Shown here piece by piece: positions 2,644-62,147 of a DNA stretch of 64,000 nt (positions are counted from its first letter, which is position 1; the number at the start of each line of letters is the position of its first letter). The stretch is taken from assembly GCA_025617745.1 (NCBI GenBank), contig CM046858.1:40531850-40595849 (forward strand), read 5' to 3'. This DNA is from Heliocidaris erythrogramma (lineage: Eukaryota; Echinodermata; Echinoidea; Camarodonta; Echinometridae). The notes under the pieces were generated by a model, which was not told where the DNA came from, did not search any database, and saw only the letters and a list, made by a program, of their open reading frames with translations. A program made the position numbers and the translations under genes.

Positions 2644-2703
2644 ATGGGTGGCCACAGCACCCAAGCCATTGGGCACTTTCATGTATATGACCCCGTCCAG
2701 GAG
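2644..2703 (+). CDS. TAZ-pseudokinase exon 1 (start codon)
   Basis: ATG GGT opens 20 codons ending VQE before the strong donor GAG|gtaagt, phase 0. Pyrimidine-rich sequence with two possible acceptors (after tttcag near 2629 and after cctcag at 2641) lies just upstream, so an untranslated 5' exon further left is likely. Confidence 0.6.
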
Positions 2704-5700
2704 GTAAGTAAATAAAAAAATGATAGAAGAAAATGATAAATCACAAAAAAGTACAACATTCTCTGTTATATTGTTGGGGTTTCTTATACAGCCATGCAAA
2801 AAATTATTGGACCAAAAATGGTTACTGAAAGTGTTATATTTGTGGTAAGAAGGAAATAAAATATCATAAAAGCAAGGTACATGAGTGAACAATTGCTGGA
2901 ATTAGTTATTCATTCAATGAAATACAAAGACATCATTTTCATTAGTTTGAATGCATGTTATAGTACCTTTATTACAGAAGCTTGGTCTAATAATTTTTTT
3001 TCAGGGCTGTATATACATGTGTACAGGTACAACATGTATATATTCAAAATGTCATCTTCAAAGATTACAGGTTACTTCTGTGAAGAGATATTGCAAGTTT
3101 GAACACTGGTACACTCAAAATTAAAAAACTATAAGTAAGTAGTTTTATCTTTGCGTGCATGCAAATATACTCAGTATAAAATGTGTGTACATCTTTACAT
3201 TGTATTAAGAAATCATGCTTTCCTCCATTTTGCAAATATGATCAGCTTATAATGCATTGTGGTATCAATGTCATTATTTGCTACAATATTAAATTAATAT
3301 ATCTACCTATTATTGCTAGTTTGGTCCAAACTACGCTACCATCGAGAAACTAAAGGTCATATTCGCGCACGCCAAACCCCCATATGGTGCCTTCCCATAG
3401 TCACATGCGCGAGCGCACACCCGCCATCTTCCTTTTTTCATTCCCACTGCCGAAGAATAACAATATTCGGATATCCCCTCCCTCTTGGTGTGGATCCCCC
3501 AGGCGCGGCAGCATCTGTTTGGGTCAGTTCGTCGCTGTTCAGCGCGAGATTGACTCCTGTAAGCAGGCGGCTGAATTATTGAGGCAATTCCGCCCACGTC
3601 AGTCGGTTCCACCTCCTAAGCCGAAGGCTAAGACGCGGGTGCCCCCAGCCCCACGCCAACAGCGGGTGAGCTCGGCTCCACCTCGCGTGGTGTTACCCAA
3701 CGGTCAGCAGCCCAGGTCTGCTCAAGGTAGGGACTTCCCTAGAGGTAGGGGGAGCAATAGGGCCTGCGCCAAGGCTCCGGCCAAGGCCAAGCAGGCCATT
3801 TGAGGGTGCGCCCGAGCAGTGGATCACCAGGTAGGCGGACAGCTTTGTATTTCCTTCCCGCTTGGGAAGATTTACTGAAGACGGCTTCGTTCTCTAAATC
3901 CACCTGCCAGTCTCGCCGCCCTTCATCAGCAGCATATCTCGGCCAAGATACAGTTGCTGCTGGTGAAGGGTGCTGTATAAAAGGTGAGAGACCACCCACA
4001 TCGGTGTGTGAGACCAGCTCCCCGCATCTTCACCCGGGTGGTGTCGGCTCTTGCTGCCTTCCTAAGGAATCGCGGCCTCCGATTGGCTCCTGGTAGCACA
4101 TTCAGAGCCAGTGCTCCGAGACCAGTTGCACCTCCTGCTCCAGAATACTCAGGAGCTAGGCTTTATAGTCAACTGGGAAAAGTCGGGAGCTGTCTGACAC
4201 CCGTACCCCATTGTACTTTGGTGTGGAGGTAACATCTCTCATCAGATCGCCCGCCCCAGCCACAGCGACAGAATTTGGTCGGTTGCTCGGTCCCTGCGTC
4301 TTTCTCGCAAGGTACAGGCCAAGCGCTGGCTTCAATTTCTGGGCTACCTCACAAATATAGTGGAGGTATTGCCAGACTGCAGACTTCTGATGAGGCCCTT
4401 CCAGAGGCACCTCTTGAAGTTCTTTTCGCCAAGCGTAGATTCCCTTAGAGTATGGATTCCATTACCGAGGGAGATCACACACCTTCTCGCCCCCTGGGCA
4501 GACGAGACGTTTCTTGCTCGAGGCAAGCCTTCCTGCACCCCTCTTCCGTCATTGTCCATCTCGACAGATGCATCCCTTCTGGGCTGGGGCGGCCATTGTG
4601 GGGGCGAGATTATTTCAGGGGATTGGTCTCGTCTGCACACCATTCCCCATATCAATGTGCTGGAAATGCTGGAGGCATTCATGTCACTTGGCCATTTCAG
4701 GCGCACGATTGTGGAACACTCCATGCTTTTCCTTACGGACAACACCACGGTTGCTGCCTACATCAGTCGTCAGGGTGGAACTCGTTCAGTTTCCCTTAAC
4801 TGTCTTACCGCCCAGTTATGGAGGTGGTGTCGGACGAACGAAATTGTCCTGATATCCTCCTACATTCCCGGACAAGAAAATCTTATAGTAGACTTTCTGT
4901 CTCGGGCAAGTGTCTCCCATCCGAGTGGTCCCTCCATCAGAAGGTTTTTTGATTTTCTCTGCGCGACTTGGGCGCCACTAGAGAGCGGACTTTTTGCAAC
5001 TGCTCTCAAACACCGTCTTCCGAGGTTCTGCTCTCGGGTACAGGACCCAGAGGCTTGGGCAGTCGATGCCTTCGCTCTCCATTGGAGACACTTTCGAGGG
5101 TATGTTTTCCCTCCGTTTCCTTTGATCCCTCAGGTCCTGCATGAGAAAGGTCCTCCTGGATGGACAGCCGTTTCCACTCCCACTGAGGCCAGACCTGGTG
5201 TCTCAGCCTCTATCCGGGATCCTCCATCATTGGCCCGAGGTCCTTCACTTGACCGCTTGGCCATTATCGGGGGAGACGCTAGGGCTTCGGGACTCTCTGA
5301 GAGTCGTAGAGATTCCATGAGATTTCTTTACAACTCCCATCTGGAGGCAGTTTCAATTTGGTGTGAAGACCTCTGGGTTTCACCCCGCAAGGCATCTGTA
5401 GGCTCCATTGCAGACTTTCTGATCTCCTTATTTGATAAGGGTAGATCTCTTTCCACTATCCGTGGATACCGCTCTGCCTTTACCACCATTCATGTTGGCT
5501 TTCCGGATGGCTCGGGAGTTTCTAGCTCCCATTACCTGACTAAGTTGCTGACATCGTTTTTTCTTACGATGACCAGCAAATCTGAAGCTGTCTCCTGCCT
5601 GGAGCCTTCCTAGGGTTCTGGGGTGGCGCGTGCGCGAATGTGACTTTTAGTCTCTCAATGGTATCGTAGTTTGCACCAAACTAGCAATAATAGGTAGATA

Positions 5701-6771
5701 CATCAATTTATTTATGATTTTTTCTGATCAACGTTAAACATGATCTGGGACTCCGGCAGTAAACCAGACTATGACTCCATGTACACGTATATCCCAGTAT
5801 GCTACAAATATTCATGTCATTTAAAAATTTTCCATAAAAGATGAAATTTTGCACAAAACAACATCAAACATATTTTATCATGGTAAGCTACAAATAATAG
5901 TTACATGTAATCAATAAGTTGTCTATGTCATGGTTATTGGAGTGCCATATGATTGTTCTTCTGCTGGCAAGCAAATCGCTGACATATGGTATACTGTGCT
6001 TTGTAAAAATGTCTTAGATTTGAATACCGCAACCCAATATTGGGAGCCGATGTTTCACAGAAAACACTCTGACAGGTGATTTCAACATATTATTGCAAAA
6101 TAAAAAGTATAACTAATATGTTGGTGAATGTACAGCTGCTTGTTTTCAAAGAACAACATTGTAAGACATTTCTTATTATTCTTATATTCATGTAGCTGAA
6201 ATCGACCACAAGTAGACCGGAAGGTGAGGAGGATCCTAGTAAACACATTCCTAAAAATTCAAAGGAACTGGAAATCAGCAGACCTGGTGAGTTGGTTCGT
6301 GAGATTCGGATATATTTGATCTAACCTGATTTGGGTTATAGTTATTAGACTACGTGGAAATGTACCTCAAAGGGAATAGAGGTGTCATAGTCGAGTGGTT
6401 AAACCACTTGACTGGGGATCCAAAAGTTGTGGGTTCGAACCCTGCATGGCACTTATGTCCTTGAGCAAGGCATTTTATCTGCATTAATCCTCTCCACACC
6501 CAGGTGTTATATGGGTACCTGGTAGGATGTGAACGTCATTGTGGCTGGAATAGCATACATGTACTGTATGTGCGCCTGTAAAATGGCCGCCAGACTGGAA
6601 TGCTCCCATAGGGAGTGGAGAATGTGCAGAATCGTAATTGAATCCAATGACTGGGGTTCTGTAAAGCGCTTTGATAACTTACTTACATGTAATTAGAAAG
6701 GCGATATAAAAATCAGTTATTATTGTATCCCCCGGCAGTATGCCGGAGGATACTTTGGATTCAGCAGCGTT

Positions 6772-6802
<31 letters not shown>

Positions 6803-9800
6803 GTCACATTCTTGTGTGCGCTCTAGCGGTCACATTTCTCGACGAATTTCTTTCAGACTTCCTGTGGACGTGTATCTTGGTAAAATCTGGACCCCTATAG
6901 TTTCTGGTGATGCTGCCCCCAGTGTTCCGTCTTTTATAGGGTAAAAGGCCATATTTTGGGGGATAGGTTGTGTGCGCTCTAGCGGTCACATTTCTCAACG
7001 GATTTTGTTCAAATTTTGTATGAAGGTGTCTCTTGGTAAAATCTGGAACCCTATAGATTTTGGTGATGCTGCCCCCAGTGTCCGTCTTTTATAGGGTCAA
7101 AGGTCATATTTTGATGGATGTCTTGTGTGTACTCTTGTGTGCGCTCTGGCGGTCACATTTCTCAACGGATTTCGTTCATGGAGATGTATCTTGGTATAAT
7201 CTACACATCTTTACTGTTTGGTGATGCTGCCCTCATTGTTCCGTCCTTTATAGGGTCAAAGCTCATTTGTCCCTTTTGTGCACTCTTACTTCTGCATTTC
7301 TTGACGGATTTCGTTCAAATTTTGCATGAAGGTGTCTCTTGGTGTAATCTAAAAACCTATAGTTTTTGGTGATGCTGCCACCAGTGTTCCGTCTTTTATA
7401 GGGTCAAAGGTCATACTTCAGGGCATGGCGTGAGTGCACTCTGCAGGCCACATTTCTTGACGGATTTCTTTCAAATTTTGTATGGAGATATATCTTGGTA
7501 TATCTCTCAACACATTTCTTTCAAATTTTATATGAAGATGTGTCTTAGTGAAACCTACACATCTAAATTGTTTGCTGATGCTACCCCCACTGTACCACTT
7601 TCTATACAGTCAAATGTCATATTCAGGTTGCTGTTAGGGTCAAATGTCATATTTTCGTTGCATGCATTCTGGAGGACACATTTGTTAACTCATTTCTTTC
7701 ATATTTTGTATGTAGGTCCATTATAGATTACACCTCTACAGTTTTTGGTGATGCTGCCTCTAGTGTTCCGTCTTTCATAGGATCAAAGGTCATATTTTAG
7801 TGGATGGCTTATGTGCGCTCTGAGGTCATATTTCTTCCGAATTTTCTATAAAAATGCATTATACTCTAATCTGCACAAATCGTTTTGGTAATGCTGCTCC
7901 TAGTGTTGACAATATTCCGGGCCACTGGCGGCAATTTCTACACCATCCTTTTGTTTGAGGGAGGGGATGGGGGAGGGTCTTTGTCCCTCCTTCAAATCGC
8001 TGCCAGTGCCGGGGGATACATTTCGCATTGCGCGGCACCAGCAGTGCACATTTCTAGTTATTATTATTTTTTTTCTTATTATTATTAAACAATAATATTA
8101 TTATCATTATTTTTATTATTATTATTACATTATCATGAGACCTGCCTCAACATGAATATGTTTTATTTTATATTATCTAGAATCAGTTGATGATCAGCAA
8201 GGCAGTGATGACACAAAAAATGCAACAAAACAGGTCTGGTTTGTAAAGCAACACAATGGCCCGAATTCACAAAGGAGGTTTAAACCTCCATAAACGTATT
8301 AAAATAAGTGTAAGTAAGCGCACATTGCCCATTCGCATGCTTAAAGAAAATATATAATTGGGTTGGATTCTGTGCGCACATACGCTTAAAAAACCCAGGA
8401 GGGGGTTTAAACTATGATTTAAAATAAACCTCCTTTGTGAATTAGGGCCATTATGTTTGAATTAAAGGGCAATCTAGCCTTTGTAATAAGCTGATTTGCA
8501 TGTAAGCACAAATATAAGAGAAACTGGTTGGTGAAGGTTTGAAAGAAATTGGACAAAGAATAACAAAGTTATGAATGTTTGCAAAATGAGATCACTAACT
8601 TTTGCGAATCTCAAATTGGCTATTTGATGGGTCGACTGTGACTTATTCCCGGTCAACTCTCCAGTTTGTCATACACTAAAATATCATTAATTTACTGTTT
8701 TCCCCTAAGCGCCATTTCTCTCGGGGCGGTACTGACAATATACGCTGACAGCGTATATTGTCAGTACCGCCCCTAGAGAAATGGCCCTGCGGCTTTATTA
8801 TGAAAAGTTTATTGTTATACAGGTGTACATGTAGGTCCTCCAAAAAGAAAAAGATCCCTCTGAGTTATTAATTTTGAAAATTTACATTTCAGTCATATTG
8901 CGTGTTGGAGCAAATGGAAGAGTTGTCTGCCGCTACATCACAACGACTTTCCTATTCGGATACTCTGAAATAGACCCGTTTACTAACATTCAAATTTGTA
9001 TGTTTCTTTCCCGGGGATCTAGTAATGAGGTACTCCTTTAACCTGTTATTAATGAATGAACTACAATACATGAAATCCAGTTTGCATACATTACTTGTTG
9101 CTATGTCTGACAATCCTCTGACAAGCTTTCAGGTTGTCAAGAACAACCTTGTTTTAAAAGTATGCCTAAAATTTGAATATATTTTTAAACAGGTCTATAT
9201 ATAGTGATTGCAACTTTCAAAAATTCATAACTTTATTACTTGTGCGATTTCATTCAAACGTTCAGTAATCTGTTTCTCTGAGTTTTCTGCTTTCTTTCAG
9301 AACAGCTTGCTATAGTAAGGTTGGATTTTTCTTTAATTATTTGATAGCCAGCGTAGATGGTGCATGTATAAGGGAGGTTATTGACATTGTACAGTGACAT
9401 GACTGTTGTGTATTGGAAAAGATTGTTGATGAATTTGATCTACTCGGTGTAAAAAGGTATTAGGAGGACAACTCCTTAAAGAGTAATTCGATAACTAGCC
9501 CAAGTATGCAGTAATCACTCAAACAGATACATTAGTTACACTGTTTTGTTTTGATGATAATCCTATTATGTCAGGATTCTATTTCAATCACTTTGAATTT
9601 GAATTGTATCATCCCCTACCCAAAACACACCTCCCCCTCCCCTCAAGACAACAACACTCTGGGACAACTTCCACCCAGACACTTACCCCTCCTTGATCCC
9701 CCCCCCCTTCCCAGCTAACTGTACCCCTTTAAAGAATTACCCCCTTTACATAATTAGTTAGCCAGGGAGAGGGAGGGGGACTGGGAAGTGGGTAATTGTA

Positions 9801-12800
9801 TGGGACAATTTCTACCCAGACAATTACCCCCTTCCCTGGCTAAACATTCCTTTAAAGAATTACCCCCTTTACTGAATCACAGCAATACCCCGTTACCCGT
9901 TTGGGAGAAATTATGTTCAGTGTATTGCATTTCTTCAATAACATGCTGTTTGATAAAGATAGAGTTGTACTTTTATCTGAGTGGTTCATAAATGCGTACT
10001 AACTTTAGTCCAGGTTTCATAAGATGAGTTTTTTGTCCACTGAGTTATGGAGCGCCAAGTGTCGATCTTCTCTTCCCATAAGACGGTAAGCATGTTAATA
10101 TGCAGTCAGTTGTTCATTGCACCTTCATGAATGTGAGCCAACAAGACGTTATGTACTATTCCTAATCACTATGCCCACCATGACAGGTCCCAGAAATTAA
10201 AGTATCGATGGCACCCCTCCATGGGGACACCCTGGACCAGGCAACAAAGGACAATTTGCAGAAACTCCTTGAAATGCGGGCATACTGTCAGGCTATGGAG
10301 CACGACTGCTGCTTTGATCTGGAATGCCTCAAGGTGAGTGAACGCCAGATACTTGCACGATGCACGTATTCTATGCTCGTGCACGTTATGTATATGATTC
10401 TTGCTGTTTGAAGAAAAACAAAATAGTAAACTCATATTTAATTTCCTTTAAGTAATTAATATTTCTGGCATGATGATAATGATTATGGAGCTAGGAAAAT
10501 TGAGTAAAAACACTTCTATTTACATTGTACATGTAGCTTATAAGGTTTTTCCTATTCCTGTTGCTCATATTATGATGATACATGTTACATGTGTATTGGC
10601 TTCTTGTGTTGTGCTCATATCTACCATGCAAAATGCTCAAAACGTTCAAATGTTTAAGAATGGCAAATGTAGATGAATTTCCTGCTAAATCAGAATGTGT
10701 TGAAAGAGAGTGTTGTGACACGCACTTGATAAGCCTAAGCGTATGCGGTCTTTGTTAAAACATGGCGGATCATGGAGCTCTCAGTAGTTCCCTCCCAAGT
10801 ACATTCTCTATTGGAAGCAATTATTTGAAGCTCCATTGAATGACTGACCAATCAGAACCGACCTCCAGTGTCGCAACTCTCTGTATGTATAGCTCTGGCA
10901 AAATGCAACCTATTGGTTGATGTTTTTCCTATCCTTATTTGATCATATTCCACTGTGCAGACAAGAGTTTATCAGAATAACTTCAAGAAGTGCTGGAGTA
11001 ACGGCTTACTGGACAAATGCAGCGACTGCAAGGAGACTGTCAAAGCTTACTGGAATCATAGTCTGGGCTGTCATTCAGATCGGTGCATGTTGCCATTCTG
11101 CTGTTACTTCAAGGAGCTGTGCAGGTGACTTTGTCTTTCTGTCCTTACCACCAAAGTAGTCTGCAGGCACAGACTCTATTTTGACACTTAAATACAATAC
11201 CATAAAGCCATGAACCCACCCTAAATTTGACAGTCCGTTTTGCTGTGAAAATATTTGAAAGGTAGATGGGTGTGAAGCACACAGGCTGTACTCTTCTGTT
11301 TGAAATATTTGTAATGTTCAGTGTAACTGGGAATATCGTTTGGGTAATTTCTGAAAGTGCATAGAGGCATAGTTGGAATGTTTTGTGTGTTATTATTATT
11401 AAGGGAATGTATAGTTTTGTTAAGCCCTTACATGTAAACTCTTTTTGTCAGATTTCTTGGATTTTAGTTGATAAATACATGTAGTAAGATACTAGCATTG
11501 CAAAGCTTCTTTGAAGATTCTTCCTCCTCAAGTGGATTGTTAAATAATTGAGAGGTACATGATTATTTAGGTACCAGGCCTGGGACTTGAATTCAAACAT
11601 TGATGTGCACTATACACACATGTAAAACTATGCGTTTGCGACACAGAGAACACACGCTATCTTCAAGCGAACTGCTGAGATGGTTGTGCAGGGAGTGGTT
11701 GCAGTCAAAGAGACCTAGCATAGGGCTCTGTTTAGACGTGATCTTGCGTTCCTTTCAGATATTTACACTAAAATCCATCGCAAATCCAGCACGGAATATC
11801 AGATGATCTGGCTTGTGTGTCTTTCGATATCAGGAGAACAATATCAGACTATATTCAACTTGTTGCATTTCAATTTCACTTTTGTTCTGAAAACTATAAA
11901 TTGGCTTTGAATGTATTCTCTTTTCAGTGAGACTGGAGCACTTCATGAGCCTGCGATGCATATATTTGAAGGAGCCTTGGGGTGTTTGATCACGGAGAGA
12001 GAGATTAAGGTCTTAGAGAAACTCCATGAGCTTGAGCAGTTGCAATATCCAGCTGCTGATGATGAAATAGCATGGGTAAGTAGTAGGTTTAGGAGGTTCT
12101 TTTATTGAAGAAAAACAACTCTGGTTTCAATATGCGGTCTCGAGTCGACTCATACGTCACCTATTTGTGGCAGTGCTACGTGTAGCTGCTCGATTGCAAT
12201 TCCATGCAGTGGTCCAACTCTGGCTGCACCGGTGCTCCAGCACCATTGTCATTGTGTATGGCACCATAAGTACATGTAGTGTGCAACTGTCACAAGGATT
12301 ATCTGATTTTCATGTAAAAACTTATCAAAATACACATGTACATGTATATGATTGCCATAATCATAATCCAAGCTTCGATGTCATACCCGCATTCATGAAA
12401 TCCATATTGAAATCATGGCTATAATGACGGGAATGAACTGCAATTTTTCGATGTGGGGTCCTGTTATGAATGGTCAGTTTAGAAGATATGTTTCCTTCAG
12501 GATGGGGCATACATTTATATTCAGAACAAACATGTTTATTAAGCCTTTCAGGACAGGAATTATTTAAGTGCTAAATTGATCACATTTTGTTCTTCAAATT
12601 GGCAACAATAACATTTTTCTTTTAGTGCTACATGGTTTGAATAAGGTGTAATGTCTTTGAAAACAATTATACATGATTAGAAATTTTGTCAAAAATTGCC
12701 AATTTGGATAAAAAAACAATGATTTTGAACATCTTAATGTGTTGCCAATTTGAGGATTTTAAAGCTTACTCTCCTTTTTTAAATTCCTGGCATCAAAGGC

Positions 12801-15800
12801 AATATAGTAATGCAACATAAATGGACATAATGTGTGCAGATATTTTTGCTCTTTCTACTCATACATCTGGTATATTTTGTAGAGCTCTGAATCAAAAGTT
12901 ATTGAGCCAAACCACAAAATGTGGTAAATTGTCTTGAAAGGGTTAATAGATTTAATGATTTTGAAAATATTAAATTGCATAATTGTATGTCAAAGGTCAT
13001 TGTTCATACAGTGTAGGTACTATATAAACACAGACAATGTGATCGCATTCATGAATACTTTCCGCCATTATCTTATCTGACATCAGAGTGCCAATATCAA
13101 TGCAGAAAGCTACCTCAGAAAGGGACAGCCTGGCTGTCATCTGACAACACTGGGCAGGCTTTGCAAGTTTGGACGCTTCACTCCCATCCGTTGCAGAGCC
13201 ACAAAGCAGAACGTCGAGGCAAAGAACTCCATTGTCATCAAAAAGGTACTTTCTCCTTCACTTTTAGTTATGTCGGGCACAGGACCTCATTTCATAAGTG
13301 CAAGGCAAAGAACTCCATTGTCATCAAAAAGGTACTTTCTCCTTCACTTTTAGTTATGTCGGGCACAGGGCCTCATTTCATAAGTGAAAGGCAAAGAACT
13401 CCATTGTCATCAAAAAGGTACTTTCTCCTTCACTTTTAGTTATGTCGGGCACAGGGCCTCATTTCATAAGTGAAAGGCAAAGAACTCCATTGTCATCAAA
13501 AAGGTACTTTCTCCTTCACTTTTACTTATGTCGGGCACAGGACCTCATTTCATAAGTGAAAGGCAAAGAACTCCATTGTCATCAAAAAGGTACTTTCTCC
13601 TTCACTTTTACTTATGTCGGGCACAGGACCTCATTTCATAAGTGAAAGGCAAAGAACTCCATTGTCATCAAAAAGGTACTTTCTCCTTCACTTTTACTTA
13701 TGTCGGGCACAGGGCCTCATTTCATAAGTGAAAGGCAAAGAACTCCATTGTCATCAAAAAGGTATACTTTCTCCTTCACTTTTAGTTATGTCGGGCACAG
13801 GGCCTCATTTCATAAGTGAGCATTTTTTTTTCAAAGGGTTATCAGTACTGTTCTAGAAAGGGGAGCACAATGTACACTTTTTGTTTGGTCAAAATTTGTC
13901 TGCCCCTTTGCCCCCCCCCCCCCTTGGGTACGCTAGTTCTGCACATCCATTCTACCATTTCATGGGACAGCCCAAACTTTGGAATATGCATTTTTGTCTC
14001 GCCTAAAAATAAAGCAAAAAACGAGACAAAGGTGCTGCTTTTCCGATGACGGCGATAGCGCGGCGGCGTCAACAATTTTCAGAAGTGCTTTCATTTCAAA
14101 AGTATATATTCAATTTCCATGACACTTGCACACAGGGTTGTAGAGTGAAAATAATGTGGAACAAATTTCAGGTCAAAAGTCGTCCAAAGTCAAAGGTCAC
14201 TTAAGATAAATTGCGTTAACTTGGCATCATTTTTGGTAGGGATTGTCTTTTGTATATCACCCACTTTCAAATGAATAACCAGTTCTTACATTTTCATATT
14301 AACCATAAAAAACTGGGCTAATTTAAAGGTTTTGAAGATGGGGGGGGGGGGGGGTGCCCCCACAAGATCTCGGCTAAACAATGTCCGTTTGTTACCAAAT
14401 TTTGCGTCTGTTTAATTTATGATGTAACATACAAGAATGAATAGTTAATTTCATGAAAATATTTTAGAACTTAATGCTAATTGATTTTTCATATATAGTA
14501 ATTTTATGTATTTTATTGAATTTTTTGGATTGTTTTGTCAATATGGACCTCCAATGTTCTCCCTATTTTGAAGTATGTGAAAGGAAGTTATTTAGCATGT
14601 GGTTGTATAACTTACAATGTTAATGTATGCAAATTATATGCATTAATTTATTAAGTTTTCTTCTGTATTTCTTTATTTCTATTATGTTAATTATTGTTTT
14701 ATTCCTTTTGTTTTCCATTGTTTTGTAATCGTTACACTTTAATAGATAAGATATTTTCAACTTCACTTCAGGTTTTAATCGTTCAAAATATGGACTGAGC
14801 AGTAAAAAGAAGCAACACATTAGAATCCTCCCAACCCCTATGCGTTTTACACATAAACAAATATGAATCTGCCATTTTTTATTGACATGTCATGTTTAAA
14901 TGTTATGTAACACCATAACAACCGAAGGTATATACACAAATATGGTACAACAGTTTAACTTTGTTAAGTTTTTTGTCAAATTTACACATGCATTTGACTT
15001 CTTCTCAAACTTTGCTAGTGGTGGATTTCAACCAAAATTGGCAGGGATCATCCTTAAGCACCCCTTGCATTCCCCAACCTTTGATTTTTCACCTCAATTT
15101 TGCCCCGATAATTGCGCAGTGCAGGCGAGACTGCCCTGTGCATTTACCTTGTTATGAATTAGAAATATAAATCTGTTGCCTGGGCATCCATTCTACCAGG
15201 CACAAAACAGCTTGTTGGTCAGTTTGATGATGTGAGGACCTGTTTTTACCCCTGGCAAAGATTTTCATACTCTTCTTTTTTTTTCATACTCTTCTTTCAT
15301 ACTCTTCATACTCTTCTTTCAGACTTCGATCAGACTCCGACACTGTCAAAGTCTGATCAGTACTCTGCAGCTACTTCATAAGACTCAACCGATCTTGGGA
15401 GACCACATCTCAACCTGTCTATGGTACAGACAGATCAATGAAAAGCTACTTATTTGTTCGACATACCTATCAGGTACTGATTATATGCCATTTCCTTATC
15501 CCCTAATGTTAGTTGGTCTAGCGGTAATGTCCGCAGTACGGTCAGCTCTCTGTCTTCACCTACAAACTCACTCTGATCGGACCCAGGTTCGAAACTTAGT
15601 CATGTCTTTTAGATGGTGACGTTAAAGGTCGGTCCCTGGTGTACATAATCAGAACTGATTGATATACATTACGTCTGTAAAAATCTAATCACACACACAT
15701 GCAACAGACATACGCGTTTATAGCGTGAACTGAGGACTCATATGCAGGCATCTGTATTTTACTACATATTCAAGAAAACGTTAATAATTTTCTGCATGAA

Positions 15801-18800
15801 CAAAGACCTATTTTTATGAGCAAACAGAGGGCCTAAATTAACCTATCCCTATATGAAAGGGCGTGAAATTTGAAACCGTTTGTAGAGATTCTGATACTGA
15901 GGACATCCTCGGTCTACTTTGAGTCCTCGAAGTGAATGTACATGTACAGTTCTTATCTATGTCCTTGGTTTTGTGAGCTGTCTCATTCCTTTCGTGTCAG
16001 TTTGGAAGAACATCAGAAGAAATGTCCTTTGAAAAGGATTGCTCTTCAAATGCCCTCATAGTCAAAATAGCTGAGGTGTTTGGGCCAAACATTCAAACCA
16101 CATGTGTATGCAGTCCCATATACCCATATCTGTGTGCAGTGCATGTGCTTTACAGCGAGATCGCGTCAATTTCTTATCATTTTAATGATTCCAACACCTC
16201 ACAGTATACACCAATTCTTATGTAGACATGATCAAATTCCCAATTGCTTCGAGACACTATCCTCCACAATGTAATCGCATGACCAGAACTCAACATTATC
16301 TTTAAACTTGTAGTAGTTCTGTCATAGTGAAATCTCATCTTTTATTCCTATTTTCTCTAGAAAAGAATCTGTCGTCCTGTTTGCAGCTTTCCCAATATAC
16401 TCTTGAGGAGTACTGGATAAAAGCATGCGATGCTGCTGTTAAACTTCATGAGTCTCGAATACTCTACCTCAACTGGAAAGGTATTTCATCTGTTTGATTT
16501 ATTTTGGATTTACTTGATGTATTTACACCCAAGAATTATGATGTAGTAGCCTGCAAGTTCAGATTTGTAGTCGCTAAATAAACGTTAAATTTTGTGTAGT
16601 ATGTAAAGAGTTTATTGTCAAGAAGATATGTAATGAAAGTGTGAAAGATATACATGTATGAAATGAATGGAGCAGAGTAGAGCATTCTAAATCCAAAGCA
16701 TGTTTTTTCCCCCAAGGTGTTCACTTTATTGCTTTTCTTTAACATAATTATATGAACATGTAGTCACTTGTTGCTGGTTTGTGAAACTAGCGACAATGCG
16801 AAGGCCTTGTTATTTTTGTGGTCTCTCAGATGGGGAGGGACGGATTCATGGTGTTACAAAAAATTCTGAATTTTGGCTCTCAGATATTTAATTTACTGCT
16901 GTGGGTTTTTTAAATTCAGCATAAACAAGGCTTCAAGCTGGTTTCATGATTACATGTATATATTTCAATCCCATGTATGTTCTGTTCATACTCTCACTCT
17001 TCATAGTGATAGTTACCCAAAAGTTGGTTTCATGACTATATATTTCAAGCTCATTTATGCTCCGTTCAGACCGTTTCTCTTTTAAGTAGATCATGTGGTA
17101 CATGCAGTTACCCATGAATTTGGTTTCGTGATTATATATTTCAGTCCCATGTATGCTCTGTTCATACTGTTTCTCTCTTAGTGGATCATGTTGTAGTGAC
17201 CCATGAAGACGGTGTGAAGCTGTGCAACTTGGACTATGCTGTAGCTATAGATTCCTCCAACAGGGACTTGAGAGGGTCATGCTCCGAGGAGTGGAGAGAA
17301 GATGAAGTTCCGGAGCATGTGAAAACTGGCCTGGATCCTCGGATAGCTCCCCCAGAGGTAAGGGCAGGGATAATGTTCATGATAGGAGAAGTCCACCTTC
17401 ATATGAAGTTGATTTTAATTTGCTCTGTACTGACCTGGCCAATATTCTTTTGCTCGCTCGCTCGCAAAAAAACTGGAGAGTTAATATTCGGGCAAAAGGC
17501 ATCCCCCATCAGCAATGGGCTGCAGCCACCCTCCCCCCCAAGATTTCCAAGGTTCCGAGGCGATATTCGGGCAACCACCACGTCATATTCGGGCCGCGGG
17601 GTTCCCAGATAATTATGTAACTTCTGTATGTTACTCCTTTACATTTTCACTACGAAAAGTTAAAAAGATTTGCTCGCTCGCTCGCAATGTAGAAATTTAA
17701 AGTTGATATTTGGGCAAAAGGCGTCCCCGCTTCGGCAATGGGCCGCAGCCCCCCTTCCCCCGAGAATTTTCAAAGTTACGATATTCAAGCAATCACCACT
17801 TCATGTTCGGGCAGCGAGGAGCCAGAATATCCACATACATGTAATTGAGCAGCGAGGTTCCCAGATAATTTTGTAATTTCTACATGTAACTTCTGTACAT
17901 TTTCACTACGAAAATTAAGGTTAAATAATTTGCTTGCTTGCTTCGCTCACTTGCAAAATTTGGATATTGAAAAGTTCATATTCTGAAAAAGGACTTCATG
18001 AATCTGTCTTTAATGCATCTACTTGCATTATAAAAAAAAATAATGGTTAATATAAGGTAATTTTGTGGCAAGTGCACTATAGTGTATTATTGGACATAAT
18101 TGTGATATTTCCGTCAATTTCGCACAAAATATTGACTCAACTCTGTAAATAACGATTAAAAATATAAACCTGTCAAACTGTACTGAAATATCTAAAATCC
18201 CACAGCTTCCAAGGGTTCCGCCCCCTGGACCCCACCCGTGAGCTCGGTCGCACAAGTGCTGTCTCATAATTCATATAATTATACAATTCATCTTACTTGT
18301 GGGCCCCCCCCCCAATTTGAAAAACTCTCCACCAGCCCTGTTTTAGTATACTATTAATACATGGTTGGAAGTGCGTTGGTGCAATCTGGCAATACAAAGG
18401 TTTTAATCGTGGTGTACTATACGCACGAGGCGCAAGGCGAGTGTGTTTGACACCACGATAAAAACCTGCGTGTTGCCAGATCGCACTAATGCACGAACTC
18501 ACAACCATGTATTAATATTTTTATAAAACAGGTCGGCAATATGATTATGAAGTCTATAAAAATGGTTACAAACCCCATAGAAACGCCAAGAGTCGCACAG
18601 TCATGGAGGCTGCCATTTGCTTTCCTGGATGACATCACAGAAGCGCAGCCAACAAAAGTCATGCGCGTTTCAGTGCGCGCATGTAATCCCTGCGCTAAAA
18701 TGACAATTAAACTACGCGATTTCATTGCGTTTTTAGTTTGCACGCACCAGAGGTACGCGTACTCGCAGCTCAGCCGTGGTTTAGAGCCTTTTTGCCGTTC

Positions 18801-19769
18801 GTTATCACTTTTTTTTGCACAGTCACATGGTGTTATTTGACCAATCAGGATGGCTACATTCTTGAACCCGTTTTATAATATTATTTATGACCTCCGGTCT
18901 TTTTCTGTCTCTGTTTATTAGGTGCTGGATGGGAGAAGACTGTCACGAGAGTCAGATAGCTGGGGCCTCGGATGCCTTCTATATCAGCTTTACAATGAAG
19001 GACGCCTTCCATATCATGATCTCAGTCACTGCAGCGATGATGAGATCAGGCAGAAGGTAAGATTTAGTCTTGTCTTGTCTCGTTTGTTTTACTGTACACA
19101 GACAGTGTCAAGCGTTTTCAAAAATTATAATGATAATAAAAGCTACATTTATATTTCTCACATATCCATCCCAGGGGGTTCTCAAAGACTCCTACATAGT
19201 ACTGTTATTATTACCCTGGCTTTAGCCCAGCTGCCCTAAGGCACTGACAGCATTCAAGGAATAAATTCCTACCAGGTACCCATTAATTAATTTACTACAC
19301 CTGGGTGGAAAGTGGCAAATGTAGATTAATGTATTGTCAGAGAACATTAGTGCCACAGCAGGACTCAATCAGCAAACCGTGTGATCCATAGTCTGGTGAC
19401 GTATCCACTGGACAAAGACACCTCTGTTTCATCAAGTGTCTTCAAGTGTCTTGTCAATGATTTTTACCTACAAATAATATTCCCCAGCAAGATATGCTGA
19501 ATTCGAGAACGTAAGGAGCTGCTTGGAGCCTGTGGGTGTGTAAGCTTTTGCCATGCCCTAGCTACACGTAAACATTTTTTTTTTTTACAATTCAATAGGA
19601 GGAACAAGTTAAAGAGATTGTCAAACAGTTTTCATGTTTCAGCCCTGTTCCCAACAAATCGCAGCAAGATATAATTCATTTTATGTGTAAATCAAGAACC
19701 GTAGAGGCAATGCCTTGGGAGGAAATAAACAGAAGGGTTAAAGGGAAGCTTGAGTTCTGGGCAAGGTAA
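2644..19769 (+). CDS. TAZ zinc finger-pseudokinase protein, 12-exon gene model (524 aa)
   Basis: Coding exons: 2644-2703, 6196-6286, 8181-8233, 10187-10333, 10961-11124, 11928-12075, 13087-13245, 15323-15473, 16361-16480, 17182-17357, 18922-19056, 19599-19769. Every junction is GT-AG and phases agree throughout, giving 524 codons plus TAA. Residues 1-68 are polar and acidic. Residues about 95-172 resemble the TAZ fold of CBP/p300: a complete third zinc site (H150, C154, C159, C164), a second site with Asn124 in place of His, and a degenerate first site. Residues about 243-524 form a kinase-like fold with the beta-3 lysine (K273), an EYW/AAVKLH helix, and an SDSWGLG helix-F motif. HRD reads YLN (360-362) and DFG reads NLD (380-382), so catalysis is unlikely. 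I recognise no named gene; a binding or scaffold role is inference. Start ATG has A two bases before it in an 'acATGG' context. Confidence 0.72.
2789..3009. mobile_element. Tc1/mariner-type MITE (CAGCC family), copy 1
   Basis: 221 bp bounded by TA dinucleotides with ends CAGCCATGCAAAAAATTATT and AATAATTTTTTTCAGGGCTG. A second copy in opposite internal orientation is at 56397-56610. Lies in intron 1 of the TAZ-pseudokinase gene. Confidence 0.8.
3300..3373. repeat. Left inverted terminal repeat of the DIRS-like fossil
   Basis: Begins ATCTACCTATTATTGCTAGT and returns inverted at 5627-5700. Confidence 0.85.
5627..5700. repeat. Right inverted terminal repeat of the DIRS-like fossil
   Basis: Ends ACTAGCAATAATAGGTAGAT, the inverse of the left end. 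Confidence 0.85.
5701..6195 (+). other. Intron 1 remainder, nothing recognised
   Basis: AT-rich; no repeat or exon signal apart from the exon 2 acceptor at its end. Confidence 0.4.
6196..6286 (+). CDS. TAZ-pseudokinase exon 2
   Basis: Acceptor tgtag|CTG and donor CCTG|gtgagt enclose 30 codons plus one base. The peptide is polar, rich in Lys, Glu, Ser and Pro, and looks disordered. Phase 0 in and 1 out match its neighbours. Confidence 0.6.
6381..6720 (+). mobile_element. tRNA-headed SINE
   Basis: The head (about 6381-6453) has an A box in GTCGAGTGGTTAAACC and a B box in GGGTTCGAACCC, as in tRNA genes, but is followed by about 270 bp of body ending in a TTATTATT tail. The body (CCCATAGGGAGTGGAGAATG ... 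GTAAAGCGCTTTG) recurs, truncated, at about 37625-37790. Confidence 0.8.
6724..8020. mobile_element. Element with CCCCCGGCA-type inverted ends enclosing a 160-bp tandem array
   Basis: The left edge carries TATCCCCCGGCA and the right edge TGCCGGGGGATA. Between them a unit of roughly 160-170 bp recurs about six times (GTGTGCGCTCTAGCGGTCAC, then GGTGATGCTGCCCCCAGTGT, then CTTTTATAGGGTCAAAGGTC), more decayed toward the right. Small frames inside are repeat shadows. Lies in intron 2 of the TAZ-pseudokinase gene. Confidence 0.65.
6773..6802. repeat. (CCG)n microsatellite
   Basis: About ten CCG/GCC units near the left end of the tandem element. Confidence 0.9.
8181..8233 (+). CDS. TAZ-pseudokinase exon 3
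   Basis: A 53-nt exon between ttatctag and CAG|gtctgg. It encodes an acidic, Gln-rich linker (ESVDDQQGSDDTK) and closes in phase 0, which fits exon 4 directly. The donor is weaker than the others. Confidence 0.55.
8257..8450. mobile_element. Fold-back MITE (TGGCCCGAATTCACAAAGGA ends)
   Basis: 194 bp; the left end returns inverted as CCTCCTTTGTGAATTAGGGC. It lies 24 bp after TAZ-pseudokinase exon 3, inside intron 3. Confidence 0.75.
8711..8785. repeat. 75-bp near-perfect palindrome
   Basis: Arms of 37 bp (GCCATTTCTC ... ATATACGCTG and its inverse) with one mismatch and a one-base centre. Probably the remnant of a fold-back element. Confidence 0.85.
8893..8972 (+). other. Exon-like stretch of uncertain status, cut by a MITE
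   Basis: A good acceptor (acatttcag) is followed by 26 codons in phase 0 (SYCVLEQMEELSAATSQRL ...) and then TAG exactly where a MITE begins. No good donor is visible. The model skips it, since exons 3 and 4 join in phase. It may be an alternative terminal exon, a dead exon, or chance; a second frame is also open here. Confidence 0.3.
8973..9195. mobile_element. TA-flanked MITE, family C copy 1
   Basis: 223 bp with GACCCGTTTACT and AAACAGGTC ends and TA on both sides. The core (ATCCAGTTTGCATACATTA) recurs at 29361-29581 and inverted at 46231-46445. Confidence 0.75.
9196..10186 (+). other. Intron 3 remainder with a diverged tandem duplication
   Basis: Around 9656-9755 and 9802-9878 the same C-rich text occurs twice (GGGACAA-TTC-ACCCAGACA ... 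TTTAAAGAATTACCCCC). A strong acceptor followed at once by a donor near 9300 would make only a 14-nt exon that breaks phase. Confidence 0.5.
10187..10333 (+). CDS. TAZ-pseudokinase exon 4 (first part of TAZ finger)
   Basis: 49 codons between tgacag and AAG|gtgagt. The second half (LLEMRAYC ... CCFDLECLK) corresponds to helix 1 and the first zinc site of TAZ domains. A C-x4-C pair (C110, C115) is kept; the canonical His and first Cys are not clearly in place, although C102 and H107 are close. Confidence 0.75.
10961..11124 (+). CDS. TAZ-pseudokinase exon 5 (second and third TAZ zinc sites)
   Basis: 54 codons plus two bases between tgtgcag and TGCAG|gtgact. It contains C128-x8-C137-x2-C140 with Asn124 at the usual His, then a textbook H150-x3-C154-x4-C159-x4-C164 site followed by YFKEL, matching the 'H..C....CPVPFC..IK' end of TAZ domains. 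Confidence 0.78.
11125..11927 (+). other. Intron 5, nothing recognised
   Basis: AT-rich intron sequence without clear repeats. Confidence 0.4.
11928..12075 (+). CDS. TAZ-pseudokinase exon 6 (linker)
   Basis: Enters in phase 2 after cttttcag and leaves in phase 0 at TGG|gtaagt. The peptide (residues 173-221) is partly helical with a Leu/Glu-rich run (EREIKVLEKLHELEQL) that could form a short coiled coil joining the finger to the kinase fold. Confidence 0.7.
12543..12942. mobile_element. piggyBac-like TTAA MITE, family D copy 1
   Basis: 400 bp flanked by TTAA on both sides (12539-12542 and 12943-12946), with ends GCCTTTCAGGACAGG and TTGTCTTGAAAGGG. A second copy is at 54632-55021. CCC-type ends plus TTAA duplication suggest the piggyBac superfamily. 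In intron 6 of the TAZ-pseudokinase gene. Confidence 0.75.
13087..13245 (+). CDS. TAZ-pseudokinase exon 7 (kinase N-lobe beta 1-3)
   Basis: 53 codons, phase 0 both ends, between acatcag and AAG|gtactt. LGRLCKFGRF resembles a degenerate glycine-rich loop and SIVIKK carries the VAIK-type lysine (K273). The last 29 nt and the donor are the first unit of an 86-bp tandem array. Confidence 0.7.
13217..13821 (+). repeat. 86-bp tandem repeat, seven units, containing the exon 7 donor
   Basis: Units start at 13217, 13303, 13389, 13475, 13561, 13647 and 13733; the last has a 2-bp insertion. Each holds GGCAAAGAACTCCATTGTCA, the AAAAAG|gta donor, a TTCTCCTTCACTTTTAG tract and CCTCATTTCATAAGTG. The first 29 nt of unit 1 are coding. 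Units are nearly identical, so the expansion is recent. Confidence 0.97.
13822..15322 (+). other. Intron 7 remainder
   Basis: Contains C and G runs (13912-13924, 14340-14354), a common-looking repeat piece at about 13995-14230 that begins with the small hairpin TTTTGTCTCG ... CGAGACAAAG, and, next to exon 8, several copies of CATACTCTTCTTT (15267-15320) that form the polypyrimidine tract of the acceptor. Confidence 0.5.
15323..15473 (+). CDS. TAZ-pseudokinase exon 8 (kinase N-lobe)
   Basis: Begins after a tandem pyrimidine tract ending ctttcag and ends TCAG|gtactg, phase 1 out. It encodes a helix-C-like region and the beta 4-5 strand ending EKLLICSTYLS, the usual hinge position of a kinase. 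Confidence 0.7.
15508..15670 (+). mobile_element. tRNA-headed SINE, second family
   Basis: An A-box-like GTTGGTCTAGCGGTAATG and a B-box-like CCAGGTTCGAAACTTAG precede a body with GGTGACGTTAAAGGTCGGTC. The same body is found on the minus strand at 22262-22550 and in part at 51855-51980. Confidence 0.65.
15969..16306 (+). repeat. Dispersed 330-bp repeat, copy 1
   Basis: Shares GAAAAGGATTGCTCTTCAAA, ACACCAATTCTTATGT and CATGACCAGAACTCAAC with copies at 19741-20120 and 21895-22262. Confidence 0.75.
16361..16480 (+). CDS. TAZ-pseudokinase exon 9 (helix E and catalytic-loop position)
   Basis: 120 nt between ttctctag and AAAG|gtattt. It ends ESRILYLNWK, which lines up with the '..I.HRDLK' catalytic loop: His, Arg and Asp are Tyr360, Leu361 and Asn362, and only the Lys is kept. 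This is direct evidence for a pseudokinase. Confidence 0.72.
16940..17207 (+). repeat. Diverged three-unit tandem repeat covering the exon 10 acceptor
   Basis: Units begin at about 16940, 17026 and 17122 with GGTTTCRTGATTAYATATTTC, 86-96 bp apart, and carry CCCATGTATGCTCTGTTCAT and a downstream GTTACCCATGAA-like piece. In the third unit the text TTAGTGGATCATGT is the acceptor and exon start; units 1 and 2 hold decayed counterparts. Confidence 0.7.
17182..17357 (+). CDS. TAZ-pseudokinase exon 10 (activation-segment region)
   Basis: Enters after ctctcttag in phase 1 and ends CCAGAG|gtaagg, phase 0. GVKLCNLDYAV aligns with 'IKL.DFGLA', so DFG is Asn-Leu-Asp. It ends RIAPPE, the APE position. 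Its 5' edge lies in a diverged three-unit tandem repeat. Confidence 0.75.
17440..17990 (+). repeat. Two-unit diverged tandem repeat with GCTCGCTCGCTCGC
   Basis: Units of about 220-260 bp begin near 17450 and 17672 with TTGCTCGCTCGCTCGCAA and continue ATTCGGGCAAAAGGC, GGGCCGCAGCC, GGTTCCCAGATAATT. A third decayed start stands at about 17930. Similar 'GAGCGAAGC' text lies at 50060-50120, 50600-50640 and 51225-51260. Confidence 0.65.
18352..18521. mobile_element. Fold-back MITE, about 170 bp
   Basis: TATTAATACATGGTTG starts the left arm and the inverse CAACCATGTATTAATA ends the right arm; inner parts (ATCTGGCAA, TCGTGGTGT) also pair. In intron 10 of the TAZ-pseudokinase gene. Confidence 0.75.
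18922..19056 (+). CDS. TAZ-pseudokinase exon 11 (helices F and G)
   Basis: 45 codons, phase 0 both ends, between tttattag and AAG|gtaaga. SDSWGLGCLLYQL matches the 'sDvWSlGv.lyEl' helix F, with the structural Asp and Gly kept, followed by GRLPYHDL, the 'G..PF.d' motif. Confidence 0.8.
19140..19440 (-). mobile_element. tRNA-headed SINE remnant, minus strand
   Basis: Read on the minus strand, a decayed tRNA-like head (GTGTCTTTGTCCAGTGGATA) is followed by CATTTGCCAC...CACCCAGGTGTAGTAAAT and TGGGTACCTGGTAGGAATTT. Related copies at 20310-20560 and 44322-44700. Confidence 0.65.
19599..19769 (+). CDS. TAZ-pseudokinase exon 12 (end of kinase fold, stop TAA)
   Basis: Follows caatag in phase 0 and encodes 56 residues ending LEFWAR, then TAA at 19767-19769. 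The peptide fits the last helices of a kinase C-lobe. An alternative donor overlaps the stop (GCAAG|gtaaaa). The last dozen codons and the following sequence recur near 21895. Confidence 0.65.
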   Translation, partial: EEQVKEIVKQFSCFSPVPNKSQQDIIHFMCKSRTVEAMPWEEINRRVKGKLEFWAR

Positions 19770-36157: not shown

Positions 36158-36183
36158 TGTGTGTATATTAATGAGATTATTTT

Positions 36184-36594
36184 ATGATATCGATATCACT
36201 TTGTATATACGACACGCCACGCATGATGTCATTGACCTGTCGTCTGCCGATGGATCGCGGTGGCGAAACGATCGGCCGTTCGGATAGAGCAGGCGATCGC
36301 TTTCAACCTTTGCCAACCCCGCTTCGTCGCGGTATGCCTCTGCAGCCTCTCCAGTACGTCGCGACCAGGCCGAGGTCATCGATCTCTAAACGGACATCGT
36401 CTATGCTCACGAAGAAGTACGGGCCTCCGTTGCAGGGCGTTATGGCGGTCGTTGGGCGATCGCCGTTGTCGAAAGAGTTGATGGCGACCTACAAGCACAC
36501 GAAGCGGGTCGGACCCTATCTCCTCGGCCCGACTATCGGGGAGGGGAGCTTCGCGAAAGTGAAAGAGGCGATGCACGTTCTCGTTGGAGAAAAG
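36184..36594 (+). CDS. HUNK: HUNK exon 1 (N-terminus, P-loop)
   Basis: 137 codons ending VGEK. The HUNK signature HTKRVGPYLLG and the P-loop GEGSFAKV occupy its end. GEK must join VAIK of exon 2, which puts the boundary at AAG|gcgagt: a GC donor. The longest frame starts at 36184, but a TATA-like box 32 bp upstream suggests that the ATGs at 36223-36250 are the real start choices. Confidence 0.85.
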
Positions 36595-60900: not shown

Positions 60901-61222
60901 GCAGTAAGATTACAATTTTATTTCTCATATTTGCTGGCAATTCTAAATTAGAGATCGAGCAACTCTTATTCATATAATCAGACTCTTTCTTTTTCTCATA
61001 TCAAGACTTACCTGTGTATGTCTTCAATACAGCTGACACAGATGGCAATAGGCTTGTTTCCATTTCTGCCCTTGACCTCATACAGCTTCTCCACTGCTTC
61101 TGCACTCTGAGACAAGGCAGCCAGGCCATAGATGGTGTCTGTGGGAACTGAGATTACATTCCCACTCATCAAACTGTTTGCTGCCAGCGCTACAACACCC
61201 CCTAGGCAATCTGGATTGCCAC
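57896..61222 (-). CDS. YRDC: YRDC, threonylcarbamoyl-AMP synthase, 3' four exons
   Basis: Minus-strand exons in transcript order: 61222-61012, 59572-59338, 58753-58617, 57959-57896; phases agree and the gene ends KEKKS-TAA. The enzyme makes threonylcarbamoyl-AMP from threonine, bicarbonate and ATP for t6A37 of ANN-decoding tRNAs. Visible YrdC/Sua5 motifs: VPTDTIYGLA, the KGRNGNKP lysine-arginine motif, LLPGPVTVL, GLRIPKYPF, and ALTSAN (SxN), then GSTVVDLS and IIRPG. The order and spacing follow human YRDC. Exon 2 enters after tttcag needing one upstream base, so the start exon, normally with a mitochondrial-type leader, is missing here and probably lies to the right of the window. A TTAA element sits in the intron after the first exon seen. 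Confidence 0.93.
58617..58753 (-). CDS. YRDC: YRDC exon with GSTVVDLS motif
   Basis: 137 nt between gatacag and GGAAG|gtaaaa on the minus strand. EFEDLWSKIDLVFDGG and GSTVVDLSVMGRFSIIRPG match human YRDC closely. Confidence 0.94.
59338..59572 (-). CDS. YRDC: YRDC exon with LLPGPVT and SAN motifs
   Basis: 235 nt between accatcag and GTCAAG|gtcagt on the minus strand. It encodes WGYVTVSDDIL, DLLPGPVTVLF, ELIGLRIPKYPF and ALTSANPTAQ, all standard YrdC landmarks in order. Confidence 0.94.
59651..60552. mobile_element. Kolobok-like non-autonomous TTAA element in a YRDC intron
   Basis: 902 bp with ends AGGAGAATCAACC and GGTTAATTCTCCT, flanked by TTAA at 59647-59650 and 60553-60556. The first eight bases match the THAP-bearing element at 24432. 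No coding capacity. Confidence 0.75.
61012..61222 (-). CDS. YRDC: YRDC exon with the substrate-binding VPTDTIYGLA motif
   Basis: 211 nt between ctttcag|GTGGC and CACAG|gtaagt on the minus strand. It encodes NVISVPTDTIYGLAALS, KLYEVKGRNGNKPIAICV and ends DIH(R). Phase 1 in, phase 2 out. It is not the first exon: no start codon fits. Confidence 0.94.
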
Positions 61223-61267
61223 CTGAAAGACAGAAAAATAAATAGTTGCAAGTCATAACAAGGATGA

Positions 61268-61440
61268 TGTCTCTCCTGCTTTTTCTTCTTCTTCTCCTCC
61301 TCCTCCTTCTTCCTCTTCCTCTTCTTCTCTATCTCTTTCCCCTTCCACTTTCCATTCTCCTTCTCGTTCTTGTTCTTCTCCTCCTCCTCTTTCTTCTTCT
61401 CTTCTCCACCCCTGCTTCTTCTTCCTCTTCCTTTTTTTGG
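61268..61440. repeat. Pyrimidine (CTT/CCT) microsatellite
   Basis: About 170 bp almost purely pyrimidine on the plus strand, just upstream of the first YRDC exon seen, inside its 5' intron. Confidence 0.92.
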
Positions 61441-61970: not shown

Positions 61971-62115
61971 CTAACGGGTACATTAGGAGGACAGTTTTTG
62001 TTCTTTTTCTTTGTTCAACTGTCGACTTAATGTACCAACTGTCGACCTAATGTAGGGGTCGCTATTATGACGAAATAAACTGCATTGTTAGGTGTCGACT
62101 TAATGTACCCGTTAG
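61971..62115. mobile_element. 145-bp element with 15-bp perfect inverted ends
   Basis: CTAACGGGTACATTA and TAATGTACCCGTTAG bound it; TCGACTTAATGTAC phrases repeat inside. AATTATGCATATATACAT-like text lies on both sides, but the AT-rich flanks make a target duplication uncertain. Confidence 0.6.
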
Positions 62116-62147
62116 TCAAATATTATTATGCATATATACATATACAA

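What the first reader, a model, noticed from the sequence alone, without database searches (positions are those of the whole stretch)
2644..19769. Apparent new domain architecture: TAZ zinc finger joined to a pseudokinase
Twelve phase-consistent exons predict a 524-residue protein with a CBP/p300-type TAZ finger followed by a complete kinase-like fold. TAZ domains are known in CBP/p300 and plant BT proteins as docking sites for transcription-factor activation domains; I know of no family joining one to a kinase fold. A scaffold or regulator in transcription or signalling is inference.
Basis: partly seen in the sequence, partly recalled or inferred. Interest (0 to 1): 0.9.

Follow-up and report, generated by a model that had tools for sequence, protein, structure and literature searches.

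The report
Sea urchin TAZ-like finger plus pseudokinase
A sea urchin gene is predicted to make a protein that joins a zinc-binding docking module resembling one in the gene activators CBP and p300 to a kinase-shaped domain that has lost its catalytic residues; the kinase half is secure, the docking half probable, and the join still needs a transcript.

Summary
The gene model holds: twelve GT-AG exons in consistent phase (2644-19769, +) give the 524-residue protein described. No second copy was found in its 1.06 Gb genome, which is echinoderm, probably sea urchin, by mitochondrial code and COX1. Residues 271-499 are a protein-kinase fold (51.2 bits, cut-off 31.7), catalytically dead by motif: HRD to YLN, DFG to NLD.

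The TAZ claim is probable, not secure. Pfam zf-TAZ stays below cut-off (10.3-11.5 bits against 25), and these exons are not among the genome's nine zf-TAZ matches at E<=10. But the best 8 of 20 PDB matches are p300 TAZ2 (E 0.0033), a score like that between p300 TAZ2 and CBP TAZ1, and TAZ2's Cys/His spacing is kept across the exon 4-5 junction with one inserted residue. Only the third zinc site is intact.

Best reading: a catalytically dead adaptor. No transcript or orthologue could be examined, so the TAZ-kinase join and the novelty of the architecture are unproven.

The parts
2644..2703 (+). exon 1, aa 1-20, predicted start ATG
   Evidence: donor 99.9th percentile; codon test does not favour this frame. 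An acceptor just upstream (exon start 2630) is weak (74th percentile), so the true 5' end is open
6196..6286 (+). exon 2, aa 21-50, polar, disordered-looking (by eye)
8181..8233 (+). exon 3, aa 51-68, acidic/polar
10187..10333 (+). exon 4, aa 69-117: first helix and first zinc site of the TAZ2-like domain (C-x4-H-x2-C-x4-C possible in place of HCCC)
10961..11124 (+). exon 5, aa 118-172: second zinc site (three Cys, His replaced by Asn) and third zinc site, HCCC intact
   Evidence: codon test does not favour this frame
11928..12075 (+). exon 6, aa 172-221: linker between TAZ-like domain and kinase domain, no Pfam match
13087..13245 (+). exon 7: kinase N-lobe, degenerate glycine loop, VIKK (VAIK lysine kept)
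13217..13819 (+). seven tandem copies of an 86-bp unit that includes the last bases of exon 7 and its 5' splice site
15323..15473 (+). exon 8: alpha-C to hinge
16361..16480 (+). exon 9: alpha-E and start of catalytic loop, HRD replaced by YLN
   Evidence: codon test does not favour this frame
17182..17357 (+). exon 10: DFG replaced by NLD, activation segment, APPE
18922..19056 (+). exon 11: alpha-F with SDSWGLG
19599..19769 (+). exon 12: end of C-lobe and stop; an alternative donor lies at 19766 (96th percentile)

Best explanation
A gene of a (probable) sea urchin, without a detectable second copy, encodes a predicted protein with, in order, a polar N-terminal tail (aa 1-68), a diverged TAZ2-like zinc-bound helical domain (about aa 85-171), a short linker, and a pseudokinase domain (about aa 225-520). 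It most likely works as a catalytically dead adaptor: the TAZ2-like bundle docks an amphipathic segment of a partner, as TAZ2 of CBP/p300 does with activation domains, and the pseudokinase binds a second protein or holds a regulatory conformation. Shown here: the internal consistency of the gene model, the kinase fold by profile, the lost catalytic motifs, no detectable second copy. Probable: TAZ2 homology and one transcript. Inferred: docking function and any role in transcription.
For: Twelve phase-consistent GT-AG exons; Pkinase 51.2 bits against a 31.7 cut-off; the alignment to GAK kinase shows YLN for HRD and NLD for DFG. TAZ: the best 8 of 20 PDB matches are p300 TAZ2 chains, best E 0.0033 over 82 residues (13 of 20 are p300 or CBP; they are versions of two domains, not independent witnesses), comparable with p300 TAZ2 against CBP TAZ1, E 0.01; BLASTP with this genome's own CBP TAZ2, E 9e-5 for a single comparison; 1 of 2000 full shuffles reaches its HMM score of 13.4 bits and the reversed sequence scores 0.7; the TAZ2 spacing C-x4-C-x12-C-x7/8-C-x2-C-x9-H-x3-C-x4-C-x4-C occurs in it and in own CBP TAZ2 and in 0 of 300,000 shuffles; with trimmed ends Pfam zf-TAZ aligns over profile 6-72 of 72. 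One gene: donor of exon 5 at the 99.4th and acceptor of exon 6 at the 97.4th percentile, no AATAAA/ATTAAA on the + strand between 11128 and 12969; exon 7 holds no Met.
Against: zf-TAZ is below its cut-off (10.3 and 11.5 bits against 25; E 1 and 0.44) and is not the first Pfam name listed for the segment: Benyvirus_P25 (E 0.072) and Tudor_KDM3B (E 0.11, 0.059), also far below their cut-offs, come before it, and exon 5 alone gives only Tudor_KDM3B. The zf-TAZ alignment was in another register, and zf-TAZ is not listed for the whole protein. Genome-wide, PF02135 does not list these exons among nine matches at E<=10, although three other matches under the cut-off are listed. The best domain E-value is 0.016. 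hhalign gives only 21% probability. 25 of 2000 shuffles that keep Cys/His in place score at least as high, so the signal lies mostly in ligand spacing. Two of the three zinc-site histidines are missing. The spacing pattern was written after seeing both sequences. Exon 5 is one of three exons whose codon usage does not favour the predicted frame. No orthologue, paralogue, transcript or structure model was available.
Confidence: 0.6

Rival explanations
1. The Cys/His-rich segment of exons 4-5 is a zinc- or disulphide-stabilised domain that resembles TAZ by chance or convergence; the gene is then a zinc-finger pseudokinase with no link to CBP/p300.
For: Sub-threshold Pfam score, with other chance-level families listed before zf-TAZ; absence from the genome-wide PF02135 list; low hhalign probability; 25 of 2000 Cys/His-fixed shuffles as good; first two zinc sites altered.
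Against: PDB ranking led by 8 p300 TAZ2 chains; spacing identity with one inserted residue; no other zinc-finger family listed in Pfam or NCBIfam with max_evalue 10, though HMMER's filters drop most matches above about 0.1.
Confidence: 0.2
2. Two neighbouring genes: a short TAZ-like protein ending ...ELCR-stop just after exon 5 (TGA at 11126-11128 overlaps the donor) and a separate pseudokinase gene starting in exon 6 (an ATG lies at 11911, inside the predicted intron, in frame with exon 6).
For: Both the stop and the in-frame ATG are in the sequence.
Against: The stop is what any phase-2 AG|GTGA donor reads as; the donor is at the 99.4th percentile; exon 6 has a strong pyrimidine-AG acceptor (97.4th); no AATAAA/ATTAAA on the + strand from 11128 to 12969.
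Confidence: 0.12
3. A relic gene on the way to becoming a pseudogene; the dead kinase motifs and the repeat array over a splice site reflect decay.
For: Seven tandem copies of the exon-7 end with its donor; catalytic residues lost.
Against: All 12 exons open with usable splice sites and no frameshift; kinase scaffold residues (APPE, SDSWGLG) kept while catalytic ones are lost, as in functional pseudokinases (inference).
Confidence: 0.06

Closest known systems
TAZ2 (CH3) domain of CBP/p300 (Pfam PF02135 zf-TAZ)
   Same: Order and spacing of eight Cys and one His from the second half of zinc site 1 to zinc site 3, with one inserted residue; PFC motif at zinc site 3.
   Different: Zinc site 1 lacks the canonical histidine (a C-x4-H-x2-C-x4-C set is present instead) and site 2 has Asn for His; an intron after the last Cys of site 1, whereas in this genome's CBP TAZ2 lies in one open frame and TAZ1 is split within zinc site 2; no KAT11, KIX, bromodomain or ZZ match in the protein.
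Eukaryotic protein kinase domain (PF00069); nearest PDB sequences GAK, BTK, AAK1
   Same: Fold by profile, VAIK-type lysine, APPE, alpha-F Asp (motif names recalled).
   Different: HRD to YLN, catalytic Asn to His, DFG to NLD, alpha-C Glu not apparent; no close kinase family identified; no paralogue detected in the genome.
Plant BT proteins (BTB-TAZ)
   Same: A TAZ domain outside CBP/p300 joined to a protein-interaction domain (recalled).
   Different: No BTB match here.

Membership tests
TAZ zinc finger (PF02135) | Score over the curated Pfam cut-off | tested here: not met
   10.3 bits and 11.5 bits against 25; own CBP TAZ2 scores 50.4
TAZ zinc finger (PF02135) | Three HCCC zinc sites (stated for TAZ2 in PMC12022988, passages read) | tested here: not met
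   By alignment, site 3 HCCC intact; site 1 without the canonical His; site 2 with Asn for His
TAZ zinc finger (PF02135) | TAZ2 ligand order and spacing (from zinc site 1's last two Cys onward) | tested here: met
   Pattern shared with own CBP TAZ2 with one-residue tolerance; 0 of 300,000 shuffles; post hoc pattern
TAZ zinc finger (PF02135) | Sequence similarity at the level known between TAZ1 and TAZ2 | tested here: met
   phmmer 20.7 bits against 19.6 bits for p300 TAZ2 and CBP TAZ1
TAZ zinc finger (PF02135) | Four-helix zinc-bound bundle | not testable with these tools
   Structure prediction switched off
CBP/p300 coactivators | KAT11, KIX, bromodomain and ZZ with two TAZ domains | tested here: not met
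   Only the two kinase families listed for the 524-aa protein with max_evalue 10; KAT11 matches only on C15 in this genome
Protein kinase fold (PF00069) | Score over curated cut-off | tested here: met
   51.2 bits against 31.7
Active protein kinases | HRD Asp and DFG Asp | tested here: not met
   YLN and NLD
BTB-TAZ (plant BT) | BTB domain | tested here: not met
   No BTB match

The most novel reading that the evidence does not exclude
A conserved echinoderm (perhaps wider deuterostome) protein family in which a TAZ2-type activation-domain docking module is fused to a pseudokinase, giving a non-enzymatic bridge between signalling proteins and transcription factors that competes with or feeds CBP/p300.
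Probability: 0.35. Interest if true: 0.7.

Novelty: new variant of a known kind. Interest (0 to 1): 0.5.

Why it matters
TAZ domains are known to me almost only from CBP/p300-type acetyltransferases and plant BT proteins (recalled; PMC5560861, passages read, describes the CBP/p300 architectures). A TAZ-type docking module freed from the acetyltransferase and tied to a dead kinase would show how coactivator docking can be reused, and would give a small testable protein for asking whether such a domain can titrate or redirect activation domains in sea urchin development.

Tried and rejected
Paralogues or relatives: the 524-aa protein against the own genome gave 18 matches at E<=10: its own 12 exons and six others at E 0.295 to 4.87 (the tool scores only its best candidates). 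The TAZ-like piece alone gave itself (2 rows) and three matches at E 6.75-7.56. Scans of genome contigs and viral contigs gave no relative; the first is bacterial and archaeal and the second viral, so the misses say little about conservation. No second copy in the window.

Other domain assignments: the N-terminal tail and linker have no Pfam match above cut-off. Benyvirus_P25, Tudor_KDM3B and Herpes_TAF50 were discarded as far below their cut-offs, the first two although they stand before zf-TAZ in the list. NCBIfam: nothing for the TAZ-like piece; for the kinase piece only chance-level names far below cut-off.

Kinase classification: GAK, BTK and AAK1 lead the PDB list, but with weak and patchy scores (60 of 728 matches shown), so no family is assigned. 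A resemblance of NLDY to the GLDY of SCYL pseudokinases is recalled, untested and not used.

Literature: ten searches; listings with abstract starts only, except passages of PMC5560861 and PMC12022988. Most subscription papers are not held, among them perhaps the sea urchin kinome paper that I recall, so 'not in print' is not claimed.

Full report
What was checked. The finding claims a 12-exon gene at 2644-19769 with a CBP/p300-type TAZ finger followed by a kinase-like fold. With approximate recalled splice matrices, donors range from the 91st to the 100th percentile of 3,554 GT sites, and acceptors from the 83rd to the 99th percentile of 3,524 AG sites in the window. Five of the 10 internal exons (4, 5, 6, 10, 11) have both sites in the top 5%; the + strand of the window holds 40 such open pieces in all, so this alone proves little. 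A codon-usage test trained on 1,699 codons of the neighbouring kinase and YRDC-like ORFs and of this genome's CBP prefers the predicted frame among six in 9 of 12 exons (sum +36 bits); exons 1, 5 and 9 fail, exon 5 being the main zinc-site exon, and 4 of 12 exceed the 95th percentile of random open 150-base pieces.

Where it is. The window lies in contig C6 of a 1.06 Gb, 26-contig genome. The mitochondrial contig C24 carries a COX1 in which AAA stands where I recall a conserved Asn (FPRMNNMSFW), as in the echinoderm/hemichordate code, and a tRNA-Arg follows 10 bases downstream of its open frame. From recall, that order and the protein are those of sea urchins; no named sequence was compared. 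Downstream on the same strand is an AMPK-related kinase gene (Pkinase in three ORFs and a UBA_SIK3 match just over its cut-off; HUNK-like by recall), and on the other strand a YRDC/Sua5-type gene.

The kinase half. Pfam Pkinase matches aa 271-499 (profile 31-242 of 263) with 51.2 bits against a cut-off of 31.7, and PK_Tyr_Ser-Thr with 33.1 against 23.1. Against the PDB the best sequence is GAK at E 1.6e-5; that alignment pairs IIHRDLKVENLL with ILYLNWKVDHVV, and KLCDFGSA with KLCNLDYA. The HRD and DFG aspartates and the catalytic Asn are gone; a VAIK-type lysine (VIKK), APPE and the alpha-F SDSWGLG remain. It is a pseudokinase by motif; activity was not tested.

The TAZ half. Pfam zf-TAZ gives 10.3 bits on exons 4-6 (in a shifted register) and 11.5 bits on the trimmed 85 residues, where it aligns over profile 6-72 of 72; the cut-off is 25, this genome's CBP TAZ2 scores 50.4, and chance-level families stand before zf-TAZ in both lists. 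Genome-wide, PF02135 lists nine matches at E<=10, none of them here. In favour: a phmmer search of 177,635 PDB sequences returns p300 TAZ2 for the best 8 of 20 matches, E 0.0033 (best single stretch 0.016); 13 of 20 are p300 or CBP, the others swi6, a spider toxin and five dynein sequences. For scale, p300 TAZ2 finds CBP TAZ1, an accepted TAZ, at E 0.01. BLASTP with own CBP TAZ2 gives E 9e-5 for one comparison. An HMM of four TAZ domains scores the segment at 13.4 bits; 1 of 2000 full shuffles and 25 of 2000 Cys/His-fixed shuffles reach it. Among 3,969 six-frame pieces of the window and the loci then held, exon 5 is the best piece that is not CBP-derived (15.0 bits), closely followed by one in L019 (14.0), a locus fetched because it resembles CBP TAZ2. 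The spacing of eight Cys and one His equals that of TAZ2 with one inserted residue, across the exon 4-5 junction; 0 of 300,000 shuffles show it, though the pattern was drawn up after the fact. hhalign is lukewarm (21%, P 0.001). I put TAZ2 homology at about 0.8. In TAZ2 each of three zincs is bound by one His and three Cys (PMC12022988, passages). Here only site 3 keeps HCCC; site 1 could be C-H-C-C, and site 2 has Asn for His.

One gene or two. The reading frame of exon 5 meets TGA just past its end, as any AG|GTGA donor in phase 2 does. Exon 5's donor and exon 6's acceptor are strong (99.4th and 97.4th percentile), no AATAAA/ATTAAA lies on the + strand between 11128 and 12969, and exon 7 has no Met. 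An ATG at 11911 keeps a two-gene model alive. RNA would settle it.

Origin. No second copy of the gene, or of its TAZ-like piece, was found in the genome at a meaningful score. The intron inside the TAZ-like domain (after the last Cys of site 1) is at neither position seen in this genome's CBP: TAZ2 lies in one open frame, and TAZ1 is split within zinc site 2. A recent exon shuffle from CBP is therefore unlikely; an old fusion or heavily diverged domain is more likely (inference).

How it probably works. TAZ2 of CBP/p300 is a docking surface for amphipathic helices of activation domains, and pseudokinases commonly act as scaffolds or allosteric partners (established knowledge, recalled). The most economical mechanism is an adaptor with two docking domains and no catalysis.

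Novelty. Ten searches of the held library listed no paper about TAZ with a kinase domain; one search lists 11 papers with both 'zf-TAZ' and 'kinase', none with a title or abstract start about such a protein; searches listed none. Eukaryotic proteomes could not be searched, so the architecture may already sit unremarked in public annotation. I rate it a new combination of two known domains, of moderate interest until a transcript and an orthologue are shown.

Noticed in passing
window 13217-13819: Seven near-identical tandem copies of an 86-bp unit made of the last bases of exon 7, its 5' splice site and some intron; it looks like a recent expansion that offers several near-identical donors.
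   Followed up: partly
L003, L004; G000:C2 near 55.88 Mb and 58.07 Mb: Two extra CBP-like loci with TAZ1 exons on C2, with no KAT11 match there at E<=0.01 and no TAZ2 match (both only on C15): possible truncated CBP paralogues or pseudogenes.
   Followed up: partly
window about 36175-49418, + (extent by eye): AMPK-related protein kinase gene in several exons, HUNK-like by recall: Pkinase matches in ORFs at 41005, 42278 and 46851, the last also with UBA_SIK3 just over cut-off.
   Followed up: partly
window 59305-61328, -: YRDC/Sua5-type gene, at least two exons.
   Followed up: partly
window 4198-5613, +: 471-aa open frame inside intron 1 that looks like a DIRS-type retroelement (by eye and recall; no Pfam match).
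   Followed up: no
window 62051-62932, +: Reverse transcriptase fragment (RVT_1 plus DUF6451), a LINE-like element.
   Followed up: no
window 6811-7500 and 17011-17195: Further tandem repeats in introns of the gene (156 bp x 4.5 and 96 bp x 1.9); the second runs over the acceptor of exon 10.
   Followed up: no
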